IMG/VR virus record: IMGVR_UViG_3300025316_000027
Span: 1 to 44,892 of that record
DNA: 44,892 bases
Direction: 5' to 3' (one strand)
From: a virus
The translations under genes were made by a program, and so were the position numbers. The notes under the pieces were generated by a model that was not told the origin of the DNA, made no database searches, and worked only from the letters and a program-made list of their open reading frames with translations. This document shows positions 3,792 to 28,648 of this stretch, piece by piece. Numbering within the stretch: position 1 is the stretch's first letter; each line of letters begins with the position of its first letter.

Positions 3792-3837
3792 GAACCATCT
3801 CCAACCAAACATAATCTAATGGCTTTGGAGATGGTTC
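3792..3837 (+). promoter_or_regulatory. 13-bp hairpin that would sequester the ribosome-binding site of the downstream endonuclease
   Basis: GAACCATCTCCAA (3792-3804) is perfectly complementary to TTGGAGATGGTTC (3825-3837), with a 20-nt loop. The GGAG at 3827-3830, 8 nt before the ATG at 3839, is inside the 3' arm, so read-through mRNA would hide it. T4 homing endonucleases such as I-TevI are silenced by this arrangement. Confidence 0.7.
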
Positions 3838-3838
3838 T

Positions 3839-4813
3839 ATGAGCGAGATGGATGATAAAATAATTGAGTTGTATGACGGCGGCCTGACTTATAAAGAAGT
3901 GTCATTAAAGACCGGCGCTAGTAATGCCAGAATATCTAAATTGGTAAAAGGCCATCGATCACAATCAGATGCTGGGAGATTGACGGTCTCCAAGGGCATA
4001 TGCAAAGTCGCAAATATGACATCGGAGCAATGCAGCGCGAACGCAATTAAATCGGCGATATCAAGCAGGAAATTTTGGACAAAACCAGAGCGAATGTTCA
4101 GAATATTACTGAATGAATGCGGCGTCGGCGTCAAGTTTCCGCCCGGCATGCATGAGATAATCAAACAAAGCGATGATGTCAATGCGGATATATTTTACCA
4201 ATACCCAATCCAAAGGTATTTATGCGACTTCGTTGACCTCACGCATAAAACCATATTTAGGATAAATGGTGACTACTGGCACGCCAACCCACTGCTTTAT
4301 CCAAATCAAGATGACCTAACGAAACCACAAAAACACAATAGGATTCAAGATCGAAATGCTAAAATTTACTTCGAGAAGCATGGGTGGATAATAATTGACA
4401 TATGGGAGAGTGAAATCGCATGGGACCAAGACAAAGTGAAACACATAATCCGGGCGGCTAGGGAAGCGGCTAACCCGACTGGCCTACATCCAGTAGATCC
4501 CCGGTTCGAATCCGGGGCCGCCCAATGGCAAGATAGGCTGAAAAAATTGTGGTTCAGGCAACCAAAAACAAAGACAAGAACCAATTTTGGGCACGGCATG
4601 TGTAAATGCGGAAAGCAATTCGAGTTTCAGAACCAGAGGGAAGCAGCAAGGAAAAAGTACTGCAGCGTAGTATGCTCTGCATTCTATAAGCGGAAAACGA
4701 AATGGCCAAGCAATTTGGCCGAGCTGGTTGCGCAGAGCTCAATGAGAGCAATTGGTATCTTATTGGGGGTGACAGACAAGGCCGTCAAGAAACACCTGAA
4801 GACTAAGGCCTAG
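3839..4813 (+). CDS. Vsr-like homing endonuclease with helix-turn-helix ends, 324 aa, containing a tRNA gene
   Basis: The N-terminus is a helix-turn-helix (about residues 7-38). Residues about 115-205 form a Vsr/very-short-patch-like nuclease: CDFVD, a GDYWHANP motif, then an RIQDRNAKIYFEKHGW helix and a WESE ending, as in the Vsr/EDxHD fold used by some phage homing enzymes. The C-terminus has a CKCG...C...C zinc knuckle and a second helix-turn-helix that closely resembles the C-terminus of the HNH enzyme at 14239-14976. Between the nuclease and the C-terminal module the frame passes, sense and in frame, through a complete tRNA gene (4452-4524). The ribosome-binding site is in a strong hairpin. 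Fold assignment is by motif only. Confidence 0.75.
   Translation: MSEMDDKIIELYDGGLTYKEVSLKTGASNARISKLVKGHRSQSDAGRLTVSKGICKVANMTSEQCSANAIKSAISSRKFWTKPERMFRILLNECGVGVKFPPGMHEIIKQSDDVNADIFYQYPIQRYLCDFVDLTHKTIFRINGDYWHANPLLYPNQDDLTKPQKHNRIQDRNAKIYFEKHGWIIIDIWESEIAWDQDKVKHIIRAAREAANPTGLHPVDPRFESGAAQWQDRLKKLWFRQPKTKTRTNFGHGMCKCGKQFEFQNQREAARKKYCSVVCSAFYKRKTKWPSNLAELVAQSSMRAIGILLGVTDKAVKKHLKTKA
4452..4524 (+). tRNA. tRNA-Val-like (anticodon TAC), embedded in the endonuclease frame
   Basis: Acceptor GGGCGGC/GCCGCCC, a 3-bp D stem GGG/CCC with GG in the loop, anticodon stem ACTGG/CCAGT around CCTACAT, T stem CCCGG/CCGGG around TTCGAAT, discriminator A. Position 33 is C instead of the near-universal T. 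The entire gene lies within codons of the 3839-4813 frame on the same strand. Confidence 0.75.
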
Positions 4814-5263: not shown

Positions 5264-5661
5264 AGCTGGACGATCTGAAATGCGAAGTGTGCGGAAAGAA
5301 GGGAGTAGCCACTTGGTCAGCCACAGAGGGAGCCCGCTGTCAGGAACACAGCGGGTACGTGGAGAAACACAAAAATACCCCGGCAGGTGAGGCCACGAGT
5401 GCCAACTCGTGCACCGCCGGGGACCACCTGGGCGAGGACCATTTAGCAGGTCGCCGGGTTTGGGACCCGGAGATTCGTGTGGGTGCGAACCCCACCGCCC
5501 AGATTTACCGGCACGATTGTGGTAGCAGTTCAAAGCGGTGCATAGTACTTGGAATCCCAATGAAGAAGGGACTATTTCACCATATAACCCAGGGTGTAGC
5601 TCAGAGGCAGAGCGCTCGGTCCGGAACCGAGAGGCCGGGATCTCAAAATTCCCCACCCTGA
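5260..5661 (+). CDS. Small zinc-binding protein whose frame runs on through two tRNA genes
   Basis: The first 40 residues (CEVCGKKG...CQEH) look like a genuine zinc ribbon and the GTG start is coupled to the upstream gene. The frame then has no stop through a hairpin, a complete tRNA-Pro and a second tRNA, finally ending on a TGA formed by the last bases of that tRNA. The C-terminal two thirds is therefore tRNA sequence read as protein. Either the original stop was lost when tRNAs arrived or the product is a meaningless extension. Only the N-terminal part is convincing. Confidence 0.4.
   Translation: MKLDDLKCEVCGKKGVATWSATEGARCQEHSGYVEKHKNTPAGEATSANSCTAGDHLGEDHLAGRRVWDPEIRVGANPTAQIYRHDCGSSSKRCIVLGIPMKKGLFHHITQGVAQRQSARSGTERPGSQNSPP
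5378..5422 (+). other. Strong composite hairpin just upstream of tRNA-Pro
   Basis: CCCCGGC (5378-5384) pairs with GCCGGGG (5416-5422). Inside, GGTG can pair with CACC, and CACGAG/CTCGTG forms an apical 6-bp hairpin with a 6-nt loop. No T-tract follows, so it is not a classical terminator. It may be a leader or processing element for the tRNA-Pro transcript, or a small structured RNA. Confidence 0.45.
5428..5503 (+). tRNA. tRNA-Pro (anticodon TGG)
   Basis: Acceptor CTGGGCG/CGCCCAG (7 of 7), D stem GACC/GGTC, anticodon stem CCGGG/CCCGG around TTTGGGA, T stem GTGGG/CCCAC around TGCGAAC. The D loop lacks an obvious GG. It lies inside the open frame of the preceding zinc-ribbon gene. Confidence 0.8.
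5590..5661 (+). tRNA. Degenerate tRNA, anticodon loop TCCGGAA (CGG by numbering; possibly a decayed Arg CCG)
   Basis: Acceptor CAGGGTG/CACCCTG and D arm GCTC/GAGC are perfect, and the anticodon stem is CTCGG/CCGAG. The loop has C at position 33, and the T arm is damaged: the T53-T61 pair is mismatched and the loop reads CTCAAAA instead of TTCRANN. The loop would be a normal Arg(CCG) loop if one T were restored. It may be non-functional. Confidence 0.5.
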
Positions 5662-11289: not shown

Positions 11290-11913
11290 TTACTCTTGGA
11301 GAGTCGTAAGCCAGTAAGCCACATCCACAAAATGTGCCCAAGAGGCGCGCTGCACTCTGGGGATGGGGAACTGGTAAGGCGGAGCCTTCGGCTCCCGCAC
11401 CAACCGCATCCCGGCTTCCCGAGGCGTCCGAGCGGACTTGCGCGTATTGCAAGCTACACATGCACAAACCAGGTTGTGCCACTCCAGCTTGCCGCCCCGG
11501 CTCTTGGGGATAACGTGGTCCAAAGTCAAATCCGAAGACTTAAACTTCTTGCCGCAGTACTGGCACCGGAAGCCATCCCGCGCAAAGAGGTTGTGCCGGT
11601 TGAGCTTAACCTTCCGACGCCGATACTCCCCATAGTGGGTCAGCCGCAGAATGGAGGGGACTGCGATGTGCCGGTTGACGGTCCGGAGCCAGATGTGCTG
11701 CTCCCGCTCGAACTCAGCCTTGAACTCACTCAGCTCCTTCCAGGACTCGAAATCGTAGGTGAAGTACTTGCGATTAGGCTCTTCGCCTTCGATATCTAGG
11801 GCCTCGGCCCGACCCTGCATGAGCAGGTTGACAGCCTTCCGCGCCGTGACGAAATCTTGCGCCACATAGTTGCGGTTCAGGATCAGAACAGGCTCTGATA
11901 ATACGGCAGTCAT
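11290..11913 (-). CDS. HNH endonuclease family protein, 207 aa
   Basis: The N-terminal VLILNRNY...VTARKAVNLLMQGRAEAL block is typical of a widespread bacterial and phage HNH family. The nuclease core is FRCQYCGKKF...LTLDHVIPKSRGG...NLVCACVACNTRK, with the CxxC...H...CxxC ribs and DH catalytic pair intact. I chose the ATG at 11913 because AAGGAGG stands just before it; the frame is open further into the tRNA. It lies 15 bases after tRNA-Leu(GAG) and could be a free-standing nuclease rather than a homing enzyme. Confidence 0.8.
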   Translation of the reverse strand: MTAVLSEPVLILNRNYVAQDFVTARKAVNLLMQGRAEALDIEGEEPNRKYFTYDFESWKELSEFKAEFEREQHIWLRTVNRHIAVPSILRLTHYGEYRRRKVKLNRHNLFARDGFRCQYCGKKFKSSDLTLDHVIPKSRGGKLEWHNLVCACVACNTRKSARTPREAGMRLVREPKAPPYQFPIPRVQRASWAHFVDVAYWLTTLQE

Positions 11914-11927
11914 GATAACCTCCTTAA

Positions 11928-12011
11928 TGCTCGGGACAGGAGTCGAACCTGCAAGACCTTGCGGCCACAAGCACCTCAAGCTTGCGCGTCTGCCAATTTC
12001 GCCACCCGAGC
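11928..12011 (-). tRNA. tRNA-Leu (anticodon GAG)
   Basis: Acceptor GCTCGGG/CCCGAGC, anticodon stem CAAGC/GCTTG around TTGAGGT, a long variable arm, T loop TTCGACT. The HNH gene starts 15 bases downstream and an AT-rich promoter-like motif lies 20 bases upstream. Confidence 0.9.
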
Positions 12012-12125: not shown

Positions 12126-12365
12126 ATGAAGATCGCCGTATTGTACGAGAATATGACGCCGCCAGAACTTCAAAACCACTTACAGCAGCAAGTCGAAGAA
12201 GCTCTCGGAGAGGTCAACCGTTGGTACTGCTCCCAGGCTATGGGATACAACGTCTCAGACCCAGAAATCCTCCTTAAATACTATATTAAGAATGGTGGAG
12301 CGGAGGGGTACCGCAAGCGCCACGAAGAATACCACCAAATGTCCGCCCCCTCACCCACTGTCTAA
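12126..12365 (+). CDS. Hypothetical protein, 79 aa
   Basis: An isolated + strand gene amid - strand genes. The protein (MKIAVLYENMTPPEL...) is predicted helical and ends in a basic, Tyr-rich segment. No family is recognised and the ribosome-binding site is weak. Its stop codon directly abuts the 3' end of a tRNA fragment on the other strand. Confidence 0.5.
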   Translation: MKIAVLYENMTPPELQNHLQQQVEEALGEVNRWYCSQAMGYNVSDPEILLKYYIKNGGAEGYRKRHEEYHQMSAPSPTV

Positions 12366-12406
12366 TGCACCCGGCGAGACTCGAACTCGCACAACCCAGC
12401 TTCGAA
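12366..12406 (-). other. tRNA 3' half of a split tRNA-Arg (probable anticodon TCG)
   Basis: On the - strand it reads TTCGAA, anticodon 3' stem GCTGG, variable GTTGT, T arm GCGAG/CTCGC around TTCGAGT, acceptor CGGGTGC, then A. No 5' half precedes it; instead the complete tRNA-Arg(CCG) and an HNH gene do. Its acceptor strand is exactly complementary to GCACCCG of the fragment at 13118-13145. Confidence 0.65.
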
Positions 12407-12480
12407 TGTCCCTGGTGGGATTCGAACCCACAAAATACCACCTTCGGAAAGTGGTGCCCATCCAATTGAGCATCAGGGAC
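12407..12480 (-). tRNA. tRNA-Arg (anticodon CCG)
   Basis: Acceptor GTCCCTG/CAGGGAC, D stem GCTC/GGGC, anticodon stem CCACT/GGTGG around TTCCGAA, T stem GTGGG/CCCAC around TTCGAAT. The first eight bases contain the TGA stop of the upstream HNH gene. It is located between the two halves of another, broken tRNA. Confidence 0.85.
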
Positions 12481-13054
12481 GCATAGGGAGAGTGTAATCT
12501 CGCGGAAGTTTTAATTTATCAAGAACCACAAGCCAATCGCCGCAATTACATATTGTATCAATAGCCTTATTTAATTGGCAATTATGATCTATAACTATCT
12601 TATCGTCAATTAGGCCACGGTGATATTCACCATGACAATTGTGGCAATAAGCGACACATTTCCTAAGTTCCGCAATAATCTTCTTGAATTGGTGCCCAAA
12701 CGCTTTATTTCCCAACTCAAACGACTTATCTTTAAGATGATGGAACACAATGTTGGTTATGGTTTTATCATAGCCACACTTTTGGCATCTATACCCAATT
12801 AAACAAAGGATTGCTCGCCGATTCCTACTTCGGATTAAATTAGCTGGGTCAGCGCCATGCGCCTCTACAAATTTATCGCGCCAATTGCGGGTATTATTAC
12901 GTTTCCTAGCCCTAAAATTCTCGACAGAGCAAGTGGGGCGGGGCGACTTGAATGGCTGACAATCAAGGCACCGAACTCGACTACCCAAATTATGGAGCTT
13001 GCCATCTATTGTCATCCAATTCGGAAACGTAGCGCCACATTTGCATGTTTTCAT
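12473..13054 (-). CDS. HNH homing endonuclease, 193 aa
   Basis: The N-terminal zinc knuckle (CKCG...CLDC) is followed by an HNH core: GYRCQKCGYDK, IVFHHLKDK, then CVAYCHNCHGEYHRG with all zinc and catalytic histidines present. The C-terminus is short and its TGA stop is formed inside the 5' acceptor strand of tRNA-Arg(CCG). A TCAAATATAG motif lies 3 bases before the ATG. The gene sits within a split tRNA, as expected if the enzyme cleaves a tRNA anticodon region. Confidence 0.85.
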   Translation of the reverse strand: MKTCKCGATFPNWMTIDGKLHNLGSRVRCLDCQPFKSPRPTCSVENFRARKRNNTRNWRDKFVEAHGADPANLIRSRNRRAILCLIGYRCQKCGYDKTITNIVFHHLKDKSFELGNKAFGHQFKKIIAELRKCVAYCHNCHGEYHRGLIDDKIVIDHNCQLNKAIDTICNCGDWLVVLDKLKLPRDYTLPMRP

Positions 13055-13073
13055 ATACTATATTTGACACTAA

Positions 13074-13101
13074 GTACTCTATCCAATTGGGCTACACTAA
13101 G
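13074..13101 (-). other. Orphan tRNA 5' half (fragment B)
   Basis: On the - strand: CTTAGTG, TA, GCCC, AATTGGATA, GAGT, AC, a tRNA acceptor and D arm. No partner with CACTAAG was found in the window. It lies between the 5' half of the split tRNA-Arg and the HNH gene, and its first eight bases recur just after it (CTTAGTGT). Confidence 0.5.
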
Positions 13102-13117
13102 ATAGAACCAGAAAAGT

Positions 13118-13145
13118 GTGCCCTATCCAATTGGACTACGGGTGC
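13118..13145 (-). other. tRNA 5' half of the split tRNA-Arg (fragment A)
   Basis: On the - strand: acceptor GCACCCG, TA, D stem GTCC/GGGC around AATTGGATA, AC, then the tRNA pattern stops in the anticodon stem. The acceptor pairs 7 of 7 with CGGGTGC of the 3' half at 12366-12406, about 710 bases downstream. Its TAG at tRNA positions 8-10 is the stop codon of the preceding RMF-like gene. Confidence 0.65.
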
Positions 13146-13423
13146 TTAATTTCCCAACGCCTGGGCGTATCCGCTTTCCCCTCATCCCACCCTAAAAACC
13201 ATTGCTCACGCCGTTCCCCCTGGTGTGGGTTGGCCTCACGCTTCAACCCATTACCAAATGCGTAGTACCCTTGCACATAATAATCAAGACCATACCCAGC
13301 ACGGGCGCGATTACATTTAGATGAAGATTTGTAAACGCGCTTAGTCGTTCCGCATCGTTTACATATCCTTCCCTCCTCGTAAAGGTGGTTGCTAAATCCA
13401 TTGATACAGGGCTTTGATTTCAT
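13136..13423 (-). CDS. Zinc-knuckle protein with a ribosome-modulation-factor-like domain, 95 aa
   Basis: The N-terminal CxN...CKRCG finger (residues 5-27) is followed by YYVQGYYAFGNGLKREANPH...EQWFLGWDEG (about residues 49-83), the Gx-AF-xG-xNP...W-xGW signature of ribosome modulation factor (RMF), which in E. coli dimerises 70S ribosomes in stationary phase. RMF-like domains are found in various phages. The ATG at 13423 overlaps the end of the tRNA-Arg transcript by spacing only 2 bases, and the stop TAG is supplied by a tRNA fragment. Ribosome binding is inferred from the motif. Confidence 0.65.
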   Translation of the reverse strand: MKSKPCINGFSNHLYEEGRICKRCGTTKRVYKSSSKCNRARAGYGLDYYVQGYYAFGNGLKREANPHQGERREQWFLGWDEGKADTPRRWEIKHP

Positions 13424-22119: not shown

Positions 22120-22878
22120 CTATTGATTACATCCACCACATGCTGAATCATCGCAGGATGCGTATTCCCATTTAAAATTATACGCTGACTTTGTCCCTCC
22201 CGCCAAGCATAGCCATATGCTACCTATTGGAACCATTGTCTTTCTGCTCGCGCTTGAAATACTATCGAATGACGATATGAACGTCTTATCCAAAGAATAC
22301 TGATTAACTTTCCTTTGTGGATATCTACCCTCATTCTTTTCTTCTTTTAATTCCGGGATATTCCTCCCATCATTTGAAAATCTCCATTGATATCCACCAT
22401 AACTCTTGAAACGCAAGTTACAGCAGGCAGATATGTTGCAAGGGCTAAGGGACACACTCCGAGCGGCTTCTTGCAACCCGTAATAAGAACAGATAAATAT
22501 GCCGTCTAAACTATACTTTGAAACATATTTAACTTTGTGCATTTGAGCTTTTCTCATCTTTTCTTTGGACTCTTTGGTGTGACTGACCCTAGATGGGCAC
22601 AGCGTTTCGTTGTAGAGTTCTCTTTTATGGCAAGAATTAAGATATTTTTCTTCAACAGTTAATAGATTCTTTTCATCGCACAACTCAAGGCCAATAAATT
22701 CGAAAGCGATCTCTCCATATTTATTCCACGCCCTTTGAAGATGTTCATTTTCGTGTCGGTTTTTCCTTAGGTCGCATTTGTGTTTGCGAAATCGTATAGC
22801 CCAAGAATTTGAACTCCCAAAGTATCTCTTTTGAGAGACTCTATTATATATGCAATATACACCACAGTCGAATTTCAT
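22120..22878 (-). CDS. GIY-YIG homing endonuclease with NUMOD-type repeats, 252 aa
   Basis: Residues about 5-95 form the GIY-YIG domain: GVYCIYN, then KRYFGSS (YFG in place of YIG), an Arg in RFRKH, and a Glu/Asn-rich end (NEHLQRAWNKYG). After a helical stretch with SHTKESKEKMRKA (NUMOD3-like) come two NUMOD1-like repeats, VSKYSLDGIFI... and VNQYSLDKTFI..., which bind DNA along the minor groove. The ATG at 22878 overlaps the hydrolase stop (ATGA), so translation is coupled to it. tRNA-Tyr lies directly downstream. Confidence 0.85.
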   Translation of the reverse strand: MKFDCGVYCIYNRVSQKRYFGSSNSWAIRFRKHKCDLRKNRHENEHLQRAWNKYGEIAFEFIGLELCDEKNLLTVEEKYLNSCHKRELYNETLCPSRVSHTKESKEKMRKAQMHKVKYVSKYSLDGIFICSYYGLQEAARSVSLSPCNISACCNLRFKSYGGYQWRFSNDGRNIPELKEEKNEGRYPQRKVNQYSLDKTFISSFDSISSASRKTMVPIGSIWLCLAGGTKSAYNFKWEYASCDDSACGGCNQ

Positions 22879-23516
22879 AGTGAATTTATCATATTTATGG
22901 TCTTTTGGATCATTTCCTGGTCGTGGGCAACCGAGTTGTGCCCACCCTCCAGAGTCTGCATCATCGCCCCTGGAATCCTTGCCGTCCGAGGACCCCACCC
23001 GCTTGACCTCACATAAAAATCATACTTGATCATATTGGTCGGCATCACTAGGTCGCCCCAGCACGGATCATCATTTACCGCGTCGATGGCCACCACATAA
23101 TCTACCTGGGCTATGTCGCTACATGCCTTGATGACCGTCGCGCCACCAAAAGAGTGGCCAATCAACACTATTTTCATGCCAGGATGCTCAGCCACCATCG
23201 CTGAGACATCTACCTTATAGCCGTTCCAGCTACCAGCGTCATGGATTTCGGCCTTGGCGGAGCAATTGGCCTGGAGGGCCAGGAGCATATTTTGTGCTTG
23301 ACTGTCACCATCATCTAGTTGGCTATTTCCTAGGCCTCCGACTACTAGGACTAGGATGGTTTTTGGTGTCTCTTCTGGCGGGATGGCTGGCTCTTCTGGC
23401 GGGATGGCTGGTTCTCTGGGGGGCATGGCGATGGGGGGCACAACCTCACCATCTTCGGGAGTGTAGTCGAATTCGCAGGTTATTTTGACGTTGGTGATTT
23501 TTAGGTTGGTGATCAT
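22875..23516 (-). CDS. Alpha/beta hydrolase (lipase/esterase-like), 213 aa
   Basis: After an N-terminal beta-strand pair and a proline-rich linker with tandem PPEEPAI units (residues about 35-50), the hydrolase fold starts at ILVLVVGGLGNS. The nucleophile elbow is GHSFGG (Ser122), a likely acid is Asp145 (VVAIDA), and the His is in GGHNSVAHD (His193 or His198). No signal peptide. The substrate is unknown; esterase or lipase action on host envelope or a capsid-linked role are possible. GGAGG precedes ATG 23516 and a TAAATATAAG motif lies 11 bases further upstream. Confidence 0.7.
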   Translation of the reverse strand: MITNLKITNVKITCEFDYTPEDGEVVPPIAMPPREPAIPPEEPAIPPEETPKTILVLVVGGLGNSQLDDGDSQAQNMLLALQANCSAKAEIHDAGSWNGYKVDVSAMVAEHPGMKIVLIGHSFGGATVIKACSDIAQVDYVVAIDAVNDDPCWGDLVMPTNMIKYDFYVRSSGWGPRTARIPGAMMQTLEGGHNSVAHDQEMIQKTINMINSL

Positions 23517-23554: not shown

Positions 23555-23627
23555 TGACCTCGGCAAGATTCGAACTTGCGACTTCTTCGGTGTGATCGAA
23601 GCACTCTAACCGCTGAGTTACGAGGCC
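23555..23627 (-). tRNA. tRNA-Val (anticodon CAC)
   Basis: Acceptor GGCCTCG/CGAGGTC, D stem ACTC/GAGT, anticodon stem CTTCG/CGAAG around ATCACAC, T stem GCAAG/CTTGC around TTCGAAT. Its bases 8-10 (TAA) are the stop codon of the upstream LAGLIDADG gene. Confidence 0.9.
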
Positions 23628-24343
23628 GGAATCAGCCTTCTATACTTTAATGAATTTTTGAGCTTATCTTTATCGGCTGCATCCCAAATTGCCTTCTTAC
23701 GATCCAAGAACATGGTGGCATCTTTGTACAACCAACTACATATCATTGCGGTATCGAATTGGCCATACCGCAATTTTTGGCTGACAGCGTTTGGGTTATG
23801 TTTGAATTTTTTATATATACCTAAATGCTTATTTATTGTGGCAGCAACCTCATCAAGCAAATTGCCAGTTGCGTTTCCGGCTGAAAAAGACAGTCGTAGA
23901 TTACTAACGCGCTTACCGTGCCGTGTTTTATAATTAACCCAGTGGATAGAGCCATCACCGTCAAAAAACCCACGTATAAAATGGTGAGTAAGATGTGATG
24001 GTATATCGAATGGCAGCTTAAGACGCGTCTCACTTTTCCGTGTGGTTTGAGCATATTTAAAGCAAAAGTCAAACAATTTGGCCGAGTAGATCAGGATTTG
24101 CCAGCAAGCTTTGCACCTAACCGTCGCCGCGTGGCTCAAACACACCTCTTTCCCCAGAAACTTGGAGAAATAGCAAAGGAATTCGCGGTCTACACTTGCC
24201 AGACCCCATGTCTTATCGATTCTTGATTTATTCTTCTTAAAACAAATCCAGCCATCAGCATACCAAAAGCCTAAGATATATGCCGAGTTTTCATTCCAAG
24301 TATCAAACAGATCGTGGTTTATGCGGTTCGAGTCCGTTTTCAT
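23618..24343 (-). CDS. LAGLIDADG homing endonuclease with two motifs, 241 aa
   Basis: Two LAGLIDADG helices are clear: YILGFWYADG (residues 22-31) and FIRGFFDGDG (residues 122-131), each ending in the catalytic acidic residue, so a monomeric pseudo-dimer enzyme is expected. I chose ATG 24343, 12 bases after a TCAAAAATAC element. The last codons and the TAA stop are formed by the 5' end of tRNA-Val(CAC). It lies between tRNA-His and tRNA-Val. Confidence 0.85.
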   Translation of the reverse strand: MKTDSNRINHDLFDTWNENSAYILGFWYADGWICFKKNKSRIDKTWGLASVDREFLCYFSKFLGKEVCLSHAATVRCKACWQILIYSAKLFDFCFKYAQTTRKSETRLKLPFDIPSHLTHHFIRGFFDGDGSIHWVNYKTRHGKRVSNLRLSFSAGNATGNLLDEVAATINKHLGIYKKFKHNPNAVSQKLRYGQFDTAMICSWLYKDATMFLDRKKAIWDAADKDKLKNSLKYRRLIPAS

Positions 24344-24377
24344 ATGGTATTTTTGACCGAACCTCACGCGCTTGAAG

Positions 24378-27568: not shown

Positions 27569-28648
27569 TTAGGCAAAACTTATGCGCCAGCGGCATATAA
27601 TCTGGAAATCTGAGGATTTCTTGAACGGCACGCTCAGAATCCTCTGGCTGAACAGCCGAAGCGTCGTGCGATAGATCCCAATTGGACCAGTGAGCGGCGC
27701 ACCTGCACTGGTCACTGGCGTACGGTCCAATACAATATCGCGCCCGCCCACCGCCTTCGTCAAGGCCAGATAATATGGGTTGGATTGCTCAATTGGGTCA
27801 TACTCCTCAGCAGACCCGCTACGCCCCACAATGTAGATCTGATCGCCTTCCTTAATTCGGTTGACGTCAGAAGCATCAACGGTTGGATCGATGGTGATCG
27901 TTTGCGAGCCGTTGGCCACCGCAATAATCTGCTTGTCGTTCAGGCCGCCCACGCCTTCCAGGAACAATAGGCTCGGGACGCAATCGCATGGCGTAGAGGT
28001 ATCGGGCAGGATTGCCCCGCCGGCCAAAGCCACCTCAGTAATGGCAAAGAAATCGCCGCTAGTAACCCCAAATCCATTATACTCGCCAGATTCGAGCGTG
28101 GTTTCGAGCACCAGGACGTTGTTGACTGCCCTAACGTCACTGGAGAGCAGCGGACTCTCAGGTGGCTGGTAAGACGGCTCAAAATAGGCCCGCTCAATCT
28201 TCTTAAGAGGCCGATCTGGATCGGAAATGGGGATTGGATTGATGAGGTCGCCGCCATGGTCTGCTCCGACATCTGGCGTCTTAGCGACTGGCGTGCCAGT
28301 CACGGGATCAATTGTATAGTACCTGGTATCGGTCGAACTGAGTGGGTATCCGTAGGTTGAACTGGCCTTGTCACTGTCAAAGGAAGCACCAAAGAGGATG
28401 TACTTTGCGGCGAATTCCTCCAAAGCGTCAATTCCAGAGTCTACCCATCCACCGGTCCCGGACGATGCGGTTGGATCCCACACTTTGGAGTATGGGAGGC
28501 GGTGGGAAAGCATTTCTTTGGCGAAGATTTTGATGAGGTTATGCTCACGGTGCCTACTGATAAGGTTGCCGTGGCGGTCGCGGATTTCGATTTCGACTTC
28601 GCCGCGATACTGCTTGAAGGATTCGGAGACAGTTATCTTGGAGGACAT
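27569..28648 (-). CDS. Virion structural protein, probably tail or baseplate, 359 aa
   Basis: The N-terminus (EIEIRDRHGNLISRHREHNLI) and C-terminus (LRLFSQRILSVPFKKSSDFQIICRWRISF) resemble tail and baseplate-associated structural proteins annotated in large myoviruses. The middle is beta-rich. No enzyme motif or membrane segment is visible. It is the first of a series of - strand structural genes. The exact position in the virion is not known. Confidence 0.6.
   Translation of the reverse strand: MSSKITVSESFKQYRGEVEIEIRDRHGNLISRHREHNLIKIFAKEMLSHRLPYSKVWDPTASSGTGGWVDSGIDALEEFAAKYILFGASFDSDKASSTYGYPLSSTDTRYYTIDPVTGTPVAKTPDVGADHGGDLINPIPISDPDRPLKKIERAYFEPSYQPPESPLLSSDVRAVNNVLVLETTLESGEYNGFGVTSGDFFAITEVALAGGAILPDTSTPCDCVPSLLFLEGVGGLNDKQIIAVANGSQTITIDPTVDASDVNRIKEGDQIYIVGRSGSAEEYDPIEQSNPYYLALTKAVGGRDIVLDRTPVTSAGAPLTGPIGIYRTTLRLFSQRILSVPFKKSSDFQIICRWRISFA

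What the first reader, a model, noticed from the sequence alone, without database searches (positions are those of the whole stretch)
12366..13145. A tRNA-Arg gene split into two halves by an HNH endonuclease and a second tRNA
On the - strand a 5' half (13118-13145, acceptor GCACCCG plus D arm) and a 3' half (12366-12406, anticodon stem side, T arm, acceptor CGGGTGC) match 7 of 7 in their acceptor strands. Together they give a plausible tRNA-Arg with anticodon TCG. Between them lie about 710 bases with another orphan 5' half, an HNH gene and a complete tRNA-Arg(CCG). This looks like a homing enzyme that hit the anticodon region and brought a working replacement tRNA. It could also be trans-assembled from separate halves as in some archaea, but that would be unprecedented here.
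Basis: partly seen in the sequence, partly recalled or inferred. Interest (0 to 1): 0.85.

Follow-up and report, generated by a model that had tools for sequence, protein, structure and literature searches.

The report
Phage tRNA gene broken by endonuclease–tRNA insert
In a large-phage tRNA array, a tRNA-Arg(TCG) gene has been cut in two by a 711-base insert carrying an HNH endonuclease gene that overlaps the start of a complete tRNA-Arg(CCG); a related phage still has the unbroken tRNA, so this looks like a scar of endonuclease-linked tRNA-gene shuffling, not a working split tRNA.

Summary
The two halves are real: 13145-13118 and 12406-12366 (- strand) have 7/7 Watson-Crick acceptor pairs, intact D and T stems, and each best matches the same window gene, tRNA-Arg(ACG). 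The claim that they join into a good tRNA needs correcting: the 5' strand of the anticodon stem (positions ~28-32) is missing. A related 341-kb phage has an intact tRNA-Arg(TCG) at the matching place, before tRNA-Leu(NAG) and an orthologous HNH gene, with no insert, so the gene was probably whole and then interrupted. The insert holds a worn second 5' half, an HNH gene and a complete tRNA-Arg(CCG), whose first 8 bases contain the HNH stop codon. Homologues of this HNH are tRNA-array genes (76 of 80 lie within 2.5 kb of a tRNA), and their stops overlap the next tRNA more often than other genes do. A second relative shows another tRNA broken around a homologous HNH, with two tRNAs interleaved. 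Best reading: an HNH–tRNA unit inserted at the anticodon arm during break repair, comparable to T4/T6 SegB, leaving a pseudogene whose codons tRNA-Arg(CCG) and (ACG) can read. Trans-assembly and group I splicing are not supported.

The parts
13118..13145 (-). 5' fragment of tRNA-Arg(TCG): acceptor GCACCCG, D arm, A26, C27
   Evidence: acceptor pairs 7/7 with 12366-12406
12366..12406 (-). 3' fragment of tRNA-Arg(TCG): T33, anticodon TCG, 3' strand of anticodon stem, variable region, T arm, acceptor CGGGTGC, A73
   Evidence: begins at the base after A73 of tRNA-Arg(CCG)
12407..13117 (-). insert of 711 bases that replaces positions ~28-32 of tRNA-Arg(TCG)
   Evidence: absent in relative L042:18759-18831
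13077..13102 (-). second orphan 5' tRNA half (D arm GTAGCCCAATTGGATAGAG), degenerate, no matching 3' half found
12473..13054 (-). HNH endonuclease gene, 193 aa, with Cys pairs and HH..NCH..H residues intact; 41.9% G+C against 49% for the window
   Evidence: (phrog_2255, E 1.1e-17)
12407..12480 (-). complete tRNA-Arg(CCG); the HNH stop codon lies in its first 8 bases (12480-12473)
13136..13420 (-). small ORF with RMF-like C-terminal part whose stop codon TAG lies in the 5' tRNA fragment
11928..12011 (-). tRNA-Leu(GAG), syntenic anchor downstream
11290..11913 (-). other HNH gene (phrog_16726), syntenic anchor downstream, 56% identical to L042:19369-19974

Best explanation
This is a tRNA-Arg(TCG) gene of a jumbo-phage tRNA array, broken by insertion of an HNH-tRNA cassette. 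A break in the anticodon arm, most likely made by a free-standing HNH homing endonuclease, was repaired from a donor molecule in which the HNH gene lay directly upstream of a tRNA-Arg gene. Repair copied [old 5' half - HNH - tRNA-Arg(CCG)] into the gap and lost about five bases of the anticodon stem. The broken gene is now a pseudogene. The incoming tRNA-Arg(CCG) reads CGG, and tRNA-Arg(ACG), with inosine, can read CGU/CGC/CGA, so CGN decoding need not suffer. Shown: the halves, the intact gene in a relative, the insert contents, the loss of the stem strand, and the tRNA-array habit of the HNH family. Inferred: cutting by this HNH, its site, the donor, and the compensation.
For: Intact tRNA-Arg(TCG) in synteny in G001: L042 order Arg(TCG) 18759 - Leu(AAG) 19208 - HNH 19369, against window 3' half - Leu(GAG) - HNH (56% identity). 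Both halves closest to the same tRNA. HNH homologues are tRNA-array genes: 76 of 80 loci have a tRNA within 2.5 kb, 64 have at least 3; their stop overlaps the next tRNA in 20 of 62 against 8 of 83 for other ORFs, Fisher p 0.001. Second case: in G004 (L049) a tRNA-Met-like gene, acceptor 7/7 (3824-4477), is split around a homologous HNH (E 5e-10) and a tRNA-Val-like 5' half, with the Val-like 3' half left downstream. Literature: SegB of T4/T6 cuts inside tRNA genes, is often beside tRNAs, and shares microhomology between its 3' end and a tRNA 5' end (PMC13096335).
Against: Only one relative with the gene at this place was found, and its upstream neighbours differ from the window's. None of the 80 surveyed HNH loci has the HNH between matched halves, so insertion into a tRNA is rare for this family or its traces fade fast. 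No donor phage carrying HNH-tRNA-Arg(CCG) was found. Cleavage cannot be computed.
Confidence: 0.66

Rival explanations
1. Ectopic recombination inside the tRNA array, without any role of the HNH nuclease: repeated D and T arms let tRNA genes and neighbouring ORFs be shuffled, and the HNH is a passenger.
For: Other broken tRNAs occur in related arrays without an HNH between the halves (L051, L063, L078, L131). CAATTGGATAG recurs in four Arg-type D arms here. L049 shows interleaved halves.
Against: Both tRNAs that are split by a long insert with a protein gene (window, L049) hold an HNH of the same family.
Confidence: 0.22
2. A self-splicing (group I) intron with its HNH gene, so that the tRNA is made whole by RNA splicing.
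For: Group I introns in tRNAs exist in this phage group: L050:8771-8571, 45 bits, E 1.6e-10. HNH genes ride in some phage introns (PMC3428280, title and abstract).
Against: No group I match in 12300-13250 even at E up to 5. Splicing would leave no 5' anticodon-stem strand. The insert holds a tRNA that would be processed separately.
Confidence: 0.03
3. A trans-assembled split tRNA as in some archaea: halves transcribed and processed apart, then joined.
For: All acceptor, D- and T-stem pairs are intact. 3' processing of tRNA-Arg(CCG) would free the 3' half exactly at T33.
Against: Positions 28-32 are missing. No flank helix beyond chance (265 of 1000 shuffles), whereas archaeal cases show a BHB splice site and in one case a perfect 13-nt trans pairing (PMC3218864). 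A relative has the intact gene.
Confidence: 0.02
4. Site-specific integration of a small element at the anticodon loop of tRNA-Arg(TCG), a usual integrase attachment site.
For: In contigs L144, L146 and L147 the same tRNA is truncated after the anticodon arm, as at attachment sites.
Against: The insert of 711 bases holds no integrase; no tRNA is restored at either junction; the only bases shared at the junctions are TTC.
Confidence: 0.03
5. Assembly artefact of the metagenome contig.
For: One contig; no reads available.
Against: The insert holds a family-typical HNH-tRNA unit, and a similar arrangement is assembled independently in L049.
Confidence: 0.04

Closest known systems
SegB of phages T4/T6 (free-standing GIY-YIG homing endonuclease of the tRNA region; PMC13096335 and the 2008 study it cites)
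   Same: Nuclease gene beside tRNAs; cleavage sites inside tRNA genes; 3' end of the nuclease gene shares sequence with a tRNA 5' end; moves or amplifies tRNA genes by recombination.
   Different: SegB is GIY-YIG, here HNH; SegB's reported outcome is inheritance or amplification of whole tRNA genes, here a tRNA gene is left broken with a nuclease-tRNA unit inside. Cleavage is untested here.
Archaeal split / trans-spliced tRNA genes (PMC3218864)
   Same: Two separated halves with pairing acceptor strands, broken near the anticodon.
   Different: No flank helix or BHB motif found, anticodon-stem strand missing, intact gene in a relative.
Group I introns in tRNA genes (RF00028), present in L050 of a related phage
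   Same: Insert in the anticodon arm; HNH genes can ride in introns.
   Different: No intron structure; insert contains a tRNA; exons do not rebuild the stem.
Integrative elements using tRNA genes as attachment sites
   Same: Insertion at the anticodon arm of a tRNA gene.
   Different: No integrase, no restored tRNA.

Membership tests
Free-standing HNH homing endonuclease | HNH domain with Zn cysteines and catalytic His/Asn | tested here: met
   phrog_2255 E 1.1e-17; conserved HH and CxxC..CHNCHxExH. Pfam only sub-threshold for this protein.
Free-standing HNH homing endonuclease | Gene not inside an intron or intein | tested here: met
   No intron family match; neighbours are tRNA pieces.
Free-standing HNH homing endonuclease | Cuts the allele that lacks the gene, near the insertion site | not testable with these tools
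   Needs purified protein. An uninserted allele exists in L042.
tRNA-region homing endonuclease of the SegB kind | Located next to tRNAs across phages | tested here: met
   76 of 80 homologous loci; the query alignment came from tRNA arrays, so partly selected.
tRNA-region homing endonuclease of the SegB kind | GIY-YIG fold | tested here: not met
   HNH; works like it, is not a member.
Archaeal split tRNA | Halves that together form a complete cloverleaf | tested here: not met
   Positions 28-32 missing.
Archaeal split tRNA | Complementary flanks next to the splice site | tested here: not met
   Best helix reached by 265 of 1000 shuffles.
Group I intron in a tRNA gene | Group I core in the insert | tested here: not met
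   No match at E up to 5; positive control L050 found at 1.6e-10.
Integrase attachment in a tRNA gene | Recombinase gene and restored tRNA | tested here: not met
   Neither in 12407-13117.

The most novel reading that the evidence does not exclude
The HNH gene and the tRNA overlapping its stop form a self-compensating mobile cassette: the nuclease destroys a tRNA gene on arrival and the linked tRNA takes over its codons, so that the cassette is hard to lose and can spread through phage tRNA arrays.
Probability: 0.2. Interest if true: 0.65.

Novelty: new variant of a known kind. Interest (0 to 1): 0.45.

Why it matters
Why phages keep large tRNA arrays and how these change is debated. This locus shows a tRNA gene broken by a nuclease–tRNA unit, with an unbroken counterpart in a relative, so the target and the inserted unit can be named and tested. 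It extends the SegB idea (homing enzymes reshaping tRNA genes) to a widespread HNH family, and warns that matching tRNA halves in phage genomes can be recombination scars, not trans-spliced tRNAs.

Tried and rejected
Group I intron: low-threshold Rfam scan of the insert negative. Trans-assembly: junction scan with ARAGORN and flank-helix shuffles negative. Exact or near-exact copies of the HNH protein, the tRNA halves or the upstream ORF in IMG/VR, and of the 5' half in GTDB genomes: none. Known phages: only distant HNH homologues and short, largely tRNA-level DNA matches; no relative by the tail protein. 'Permuted tRNAs' in L042: the first is a YrlA-type Y RNA (42.9 bits, below Rfam's own cut-off of 69, E 4.9e-8), so not pursued as permuted tRNAs. 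General closeness of the HNH gene to the next tRNA is not special by itself: other ORFs in these arrays have a similar median gap (17 against 18); only the overlap is enriched. Orphan 5' halves upstream of the HNH are rare in the survey (3 of 75), so half 2 is not a family trait. Six further relatives (G006-G011) gave no second view of the locus.

Full report
OBSERVATION. On the - strand, 13145-13118 reads GCACCCG TA GTCC AATTGGATA GGGC A C and 12406-12366 reads TTCGAA GCTGG GTTGT GCGAG TTCGAGT CTCGC CGGGTGC A. Acceptor strands pair 7/7, the T stem 5/5, the D stem 4/4. The 3' piece is, apart from pattern-level chance matches, the only T arm in the list of the window that is not in a complete tRNA. 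A systematic search for orphan halves with matching acceptors recovers the pair; the same search on reversed sequence of 80 tRNA-array loci gives none. Aligned separately to all window tRNAs, each half scores best with tRNA-Arg(ACG), and no shuffle of 500 does as well. The acceptor GCACCCG/CGGGTGC also belongs to intact tRNA-Arg(TCG) genes in L145 and L148. So these are two pieces of one tRNA-Arg(TCG).

CORRECTION. After A26/C27 the 5' piece continues ACTTTTCTGG, while the 3' piece needs CCAGC in front of its loop. About five bases (28-32) are gone. Of the junctions tried, those that ARAGORN calls Arg(TCG) have no proper anticodon stem, and folding agrees.

THE INSERT. Between the pieces lie 711 bases: a second, degenerate 5' half (GTAGCCCAATTGGATAGAG, about 13102-13077), an HNH gene (13054-12473) and a complete tRNA-Arg(CCG) (12480-12407). 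The HNH stop codon lies inside the first 8 bases of that tRNA, and the tRNA's last base touches T33 of the 3' piece. The HNH gene has 41.9% G+C, the stretch before it 33%, the window 49%.

RELATIVES. The tail protein 27572-28648 led to a 341-kb phage contig, G001 (67% identity), with 47 tRNA matches. Its array has intact tRNA-Arg(TCG) at L042:18759-18831, then tRNA-Leu(AAG), then an HNH gene 56% identical to window 11290-11913. The window has 3' half, tRNA-Leu(GAG), HNH in the same order. There is no insert in G001. Upstream neighbours differ, so the orthology rests on the downstream side. G004 (62% in the tail protein) and more distant relatives have no tRNA-Arg(TCG) in the arrays read.

A SECOND CASE. 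In G004 (L049:3780-4520) the order is: 5' half A (GGGCCTG), HNH gene, 5' half B (GGGCGAT), 3' half A (CAGGCCC), 3' half B (ATCGCCC). A matches tRNA-Met(CAT) of the same genome (3' part 27 of 28 bases), B is closest to tRNA-Val. The HNH is homologous to the window's (E 5e-10), and its stop again lies within the start of tRNA B. Two tRNAs are interleaved, which is what break repair with template switching between tRNA genes would leave; it is hard to read as a splicing arrangement.

THE HNH FAMILY. An alignment of six such HNH proteins fetched 80 IMG/VR loci. In 76 a tRNA lies within 2.5 kb, in 64 at least three; the query set came from tRNA arrays, so this is partly selected. The gap to the next tRNA is short, but so it is for other ORFs; overlap into the tRNA is commoner for the HNHs (20 of 62 against 8 of 83, p 0.001, sequences not fully independent). 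In none of the 80 does the HNH lie between matched halves, so the window's arrangement is unusual.

MECHANISM. Most likely an HNH–tRNA unit was copied into tRNA-Arg(TCG) during repair of a break in its anticodon arm. The old 5' half before the HNH may be a trace of an earlier host gene. Shown: intact gene in a relative, insertion in the anticodon arm, small loss, content of the insert. Inferred: that this HNH cut the DNA, the donor, and that tRNA-Arg(CCG) with tRNA-Arg(ACG) covers the lost decoding (general knowledge of wobble; 32 ORFs of the window use CGA 27 and CGG 66 times in 8491 codons).

COMPARISON. The closest known system is SegB of T4/T6, which cuts inside tRNA genes, is often encoded beside them and shares microhomology with a tRNA 5' end (PMC13096335). 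This case works like SegB but is HNH, and its product is a broken tRNA. Archaeal split tRNAs (PMC3218864) have splice sites and flank pairing that are absent here. A group I intron is not supported, with L050 as positive control. A search of the held papers for split tRNAs together with phage homing endonucleases found nothing; that library is incomplete.

VERDICT. A real and informative scar, probably a pseudogene; new variant of a known kind. Cleavage by the HNH and mobility of the HNH–tRNA unit are not shown.

Noticed in passing
L049:3780-4520 (G004, IMGVR_UViG_3300023202_000383): Interleaved halves of a tRNA-Met-like and a tRNA-Val-like gene around an HNH gene (order A5, HNH, B5, A3, B3).
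   Followed up: partly
L050:8796-8526 (- strand): tRNA gene, probably Tyr, with a group I intron in the anticodon arm (RF00028, 45.3 bits, E 1.6e-10); similar looking inserts in L069:1160-1441 and L099:2105-2384.
   Followed up: partly
L042:7985-8580: At least three YrlA-type Y RNA-like genes in tandem (42.9, 33.1 and 31.6 bits, below Rfam's cut-off of 69) inside a jumbo-phage tRNA array; their tRNA-like domains look like permuted tRNAs.
   Followed up: partly
L060:2122-2336 (Prevotella phage Lak-B6): tRNA-Asn gene interrupted in the anticodon loop by about 140 bases that hold a tRNA-like T arm and an outer helix CTACATA/TATGTAG; tRNA-Asn(GTT) is intact in Lak-C1 (L061:2273-2346).
   Followed up: partly
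window 23618-24367 and 22120-22998: A LAGLIDADG gene ending inside the start of tRNA-Val(CAC) and a GIY-YIG gene ending 7 bases before tRNA-Tyr: other nuclease families also sit directly upstream of tRNAs here.
   Followed up: no
L160:3439-3650 (G007) and L048:4690-4764 (G004): Two tRNAs with anticodon TCA and one with TTA: possible stop-codon suppressors in these phages.
   Followed up: no
window 5590-5661: tRNA found by Rfam (49 bits) but not by ARAGORN.
   Followed up: no
L144, L146, L147: tRNA-Arg(TCG) genes truncated after the anticodon arm, looking like prophage attachment sites.
   Followed up: no
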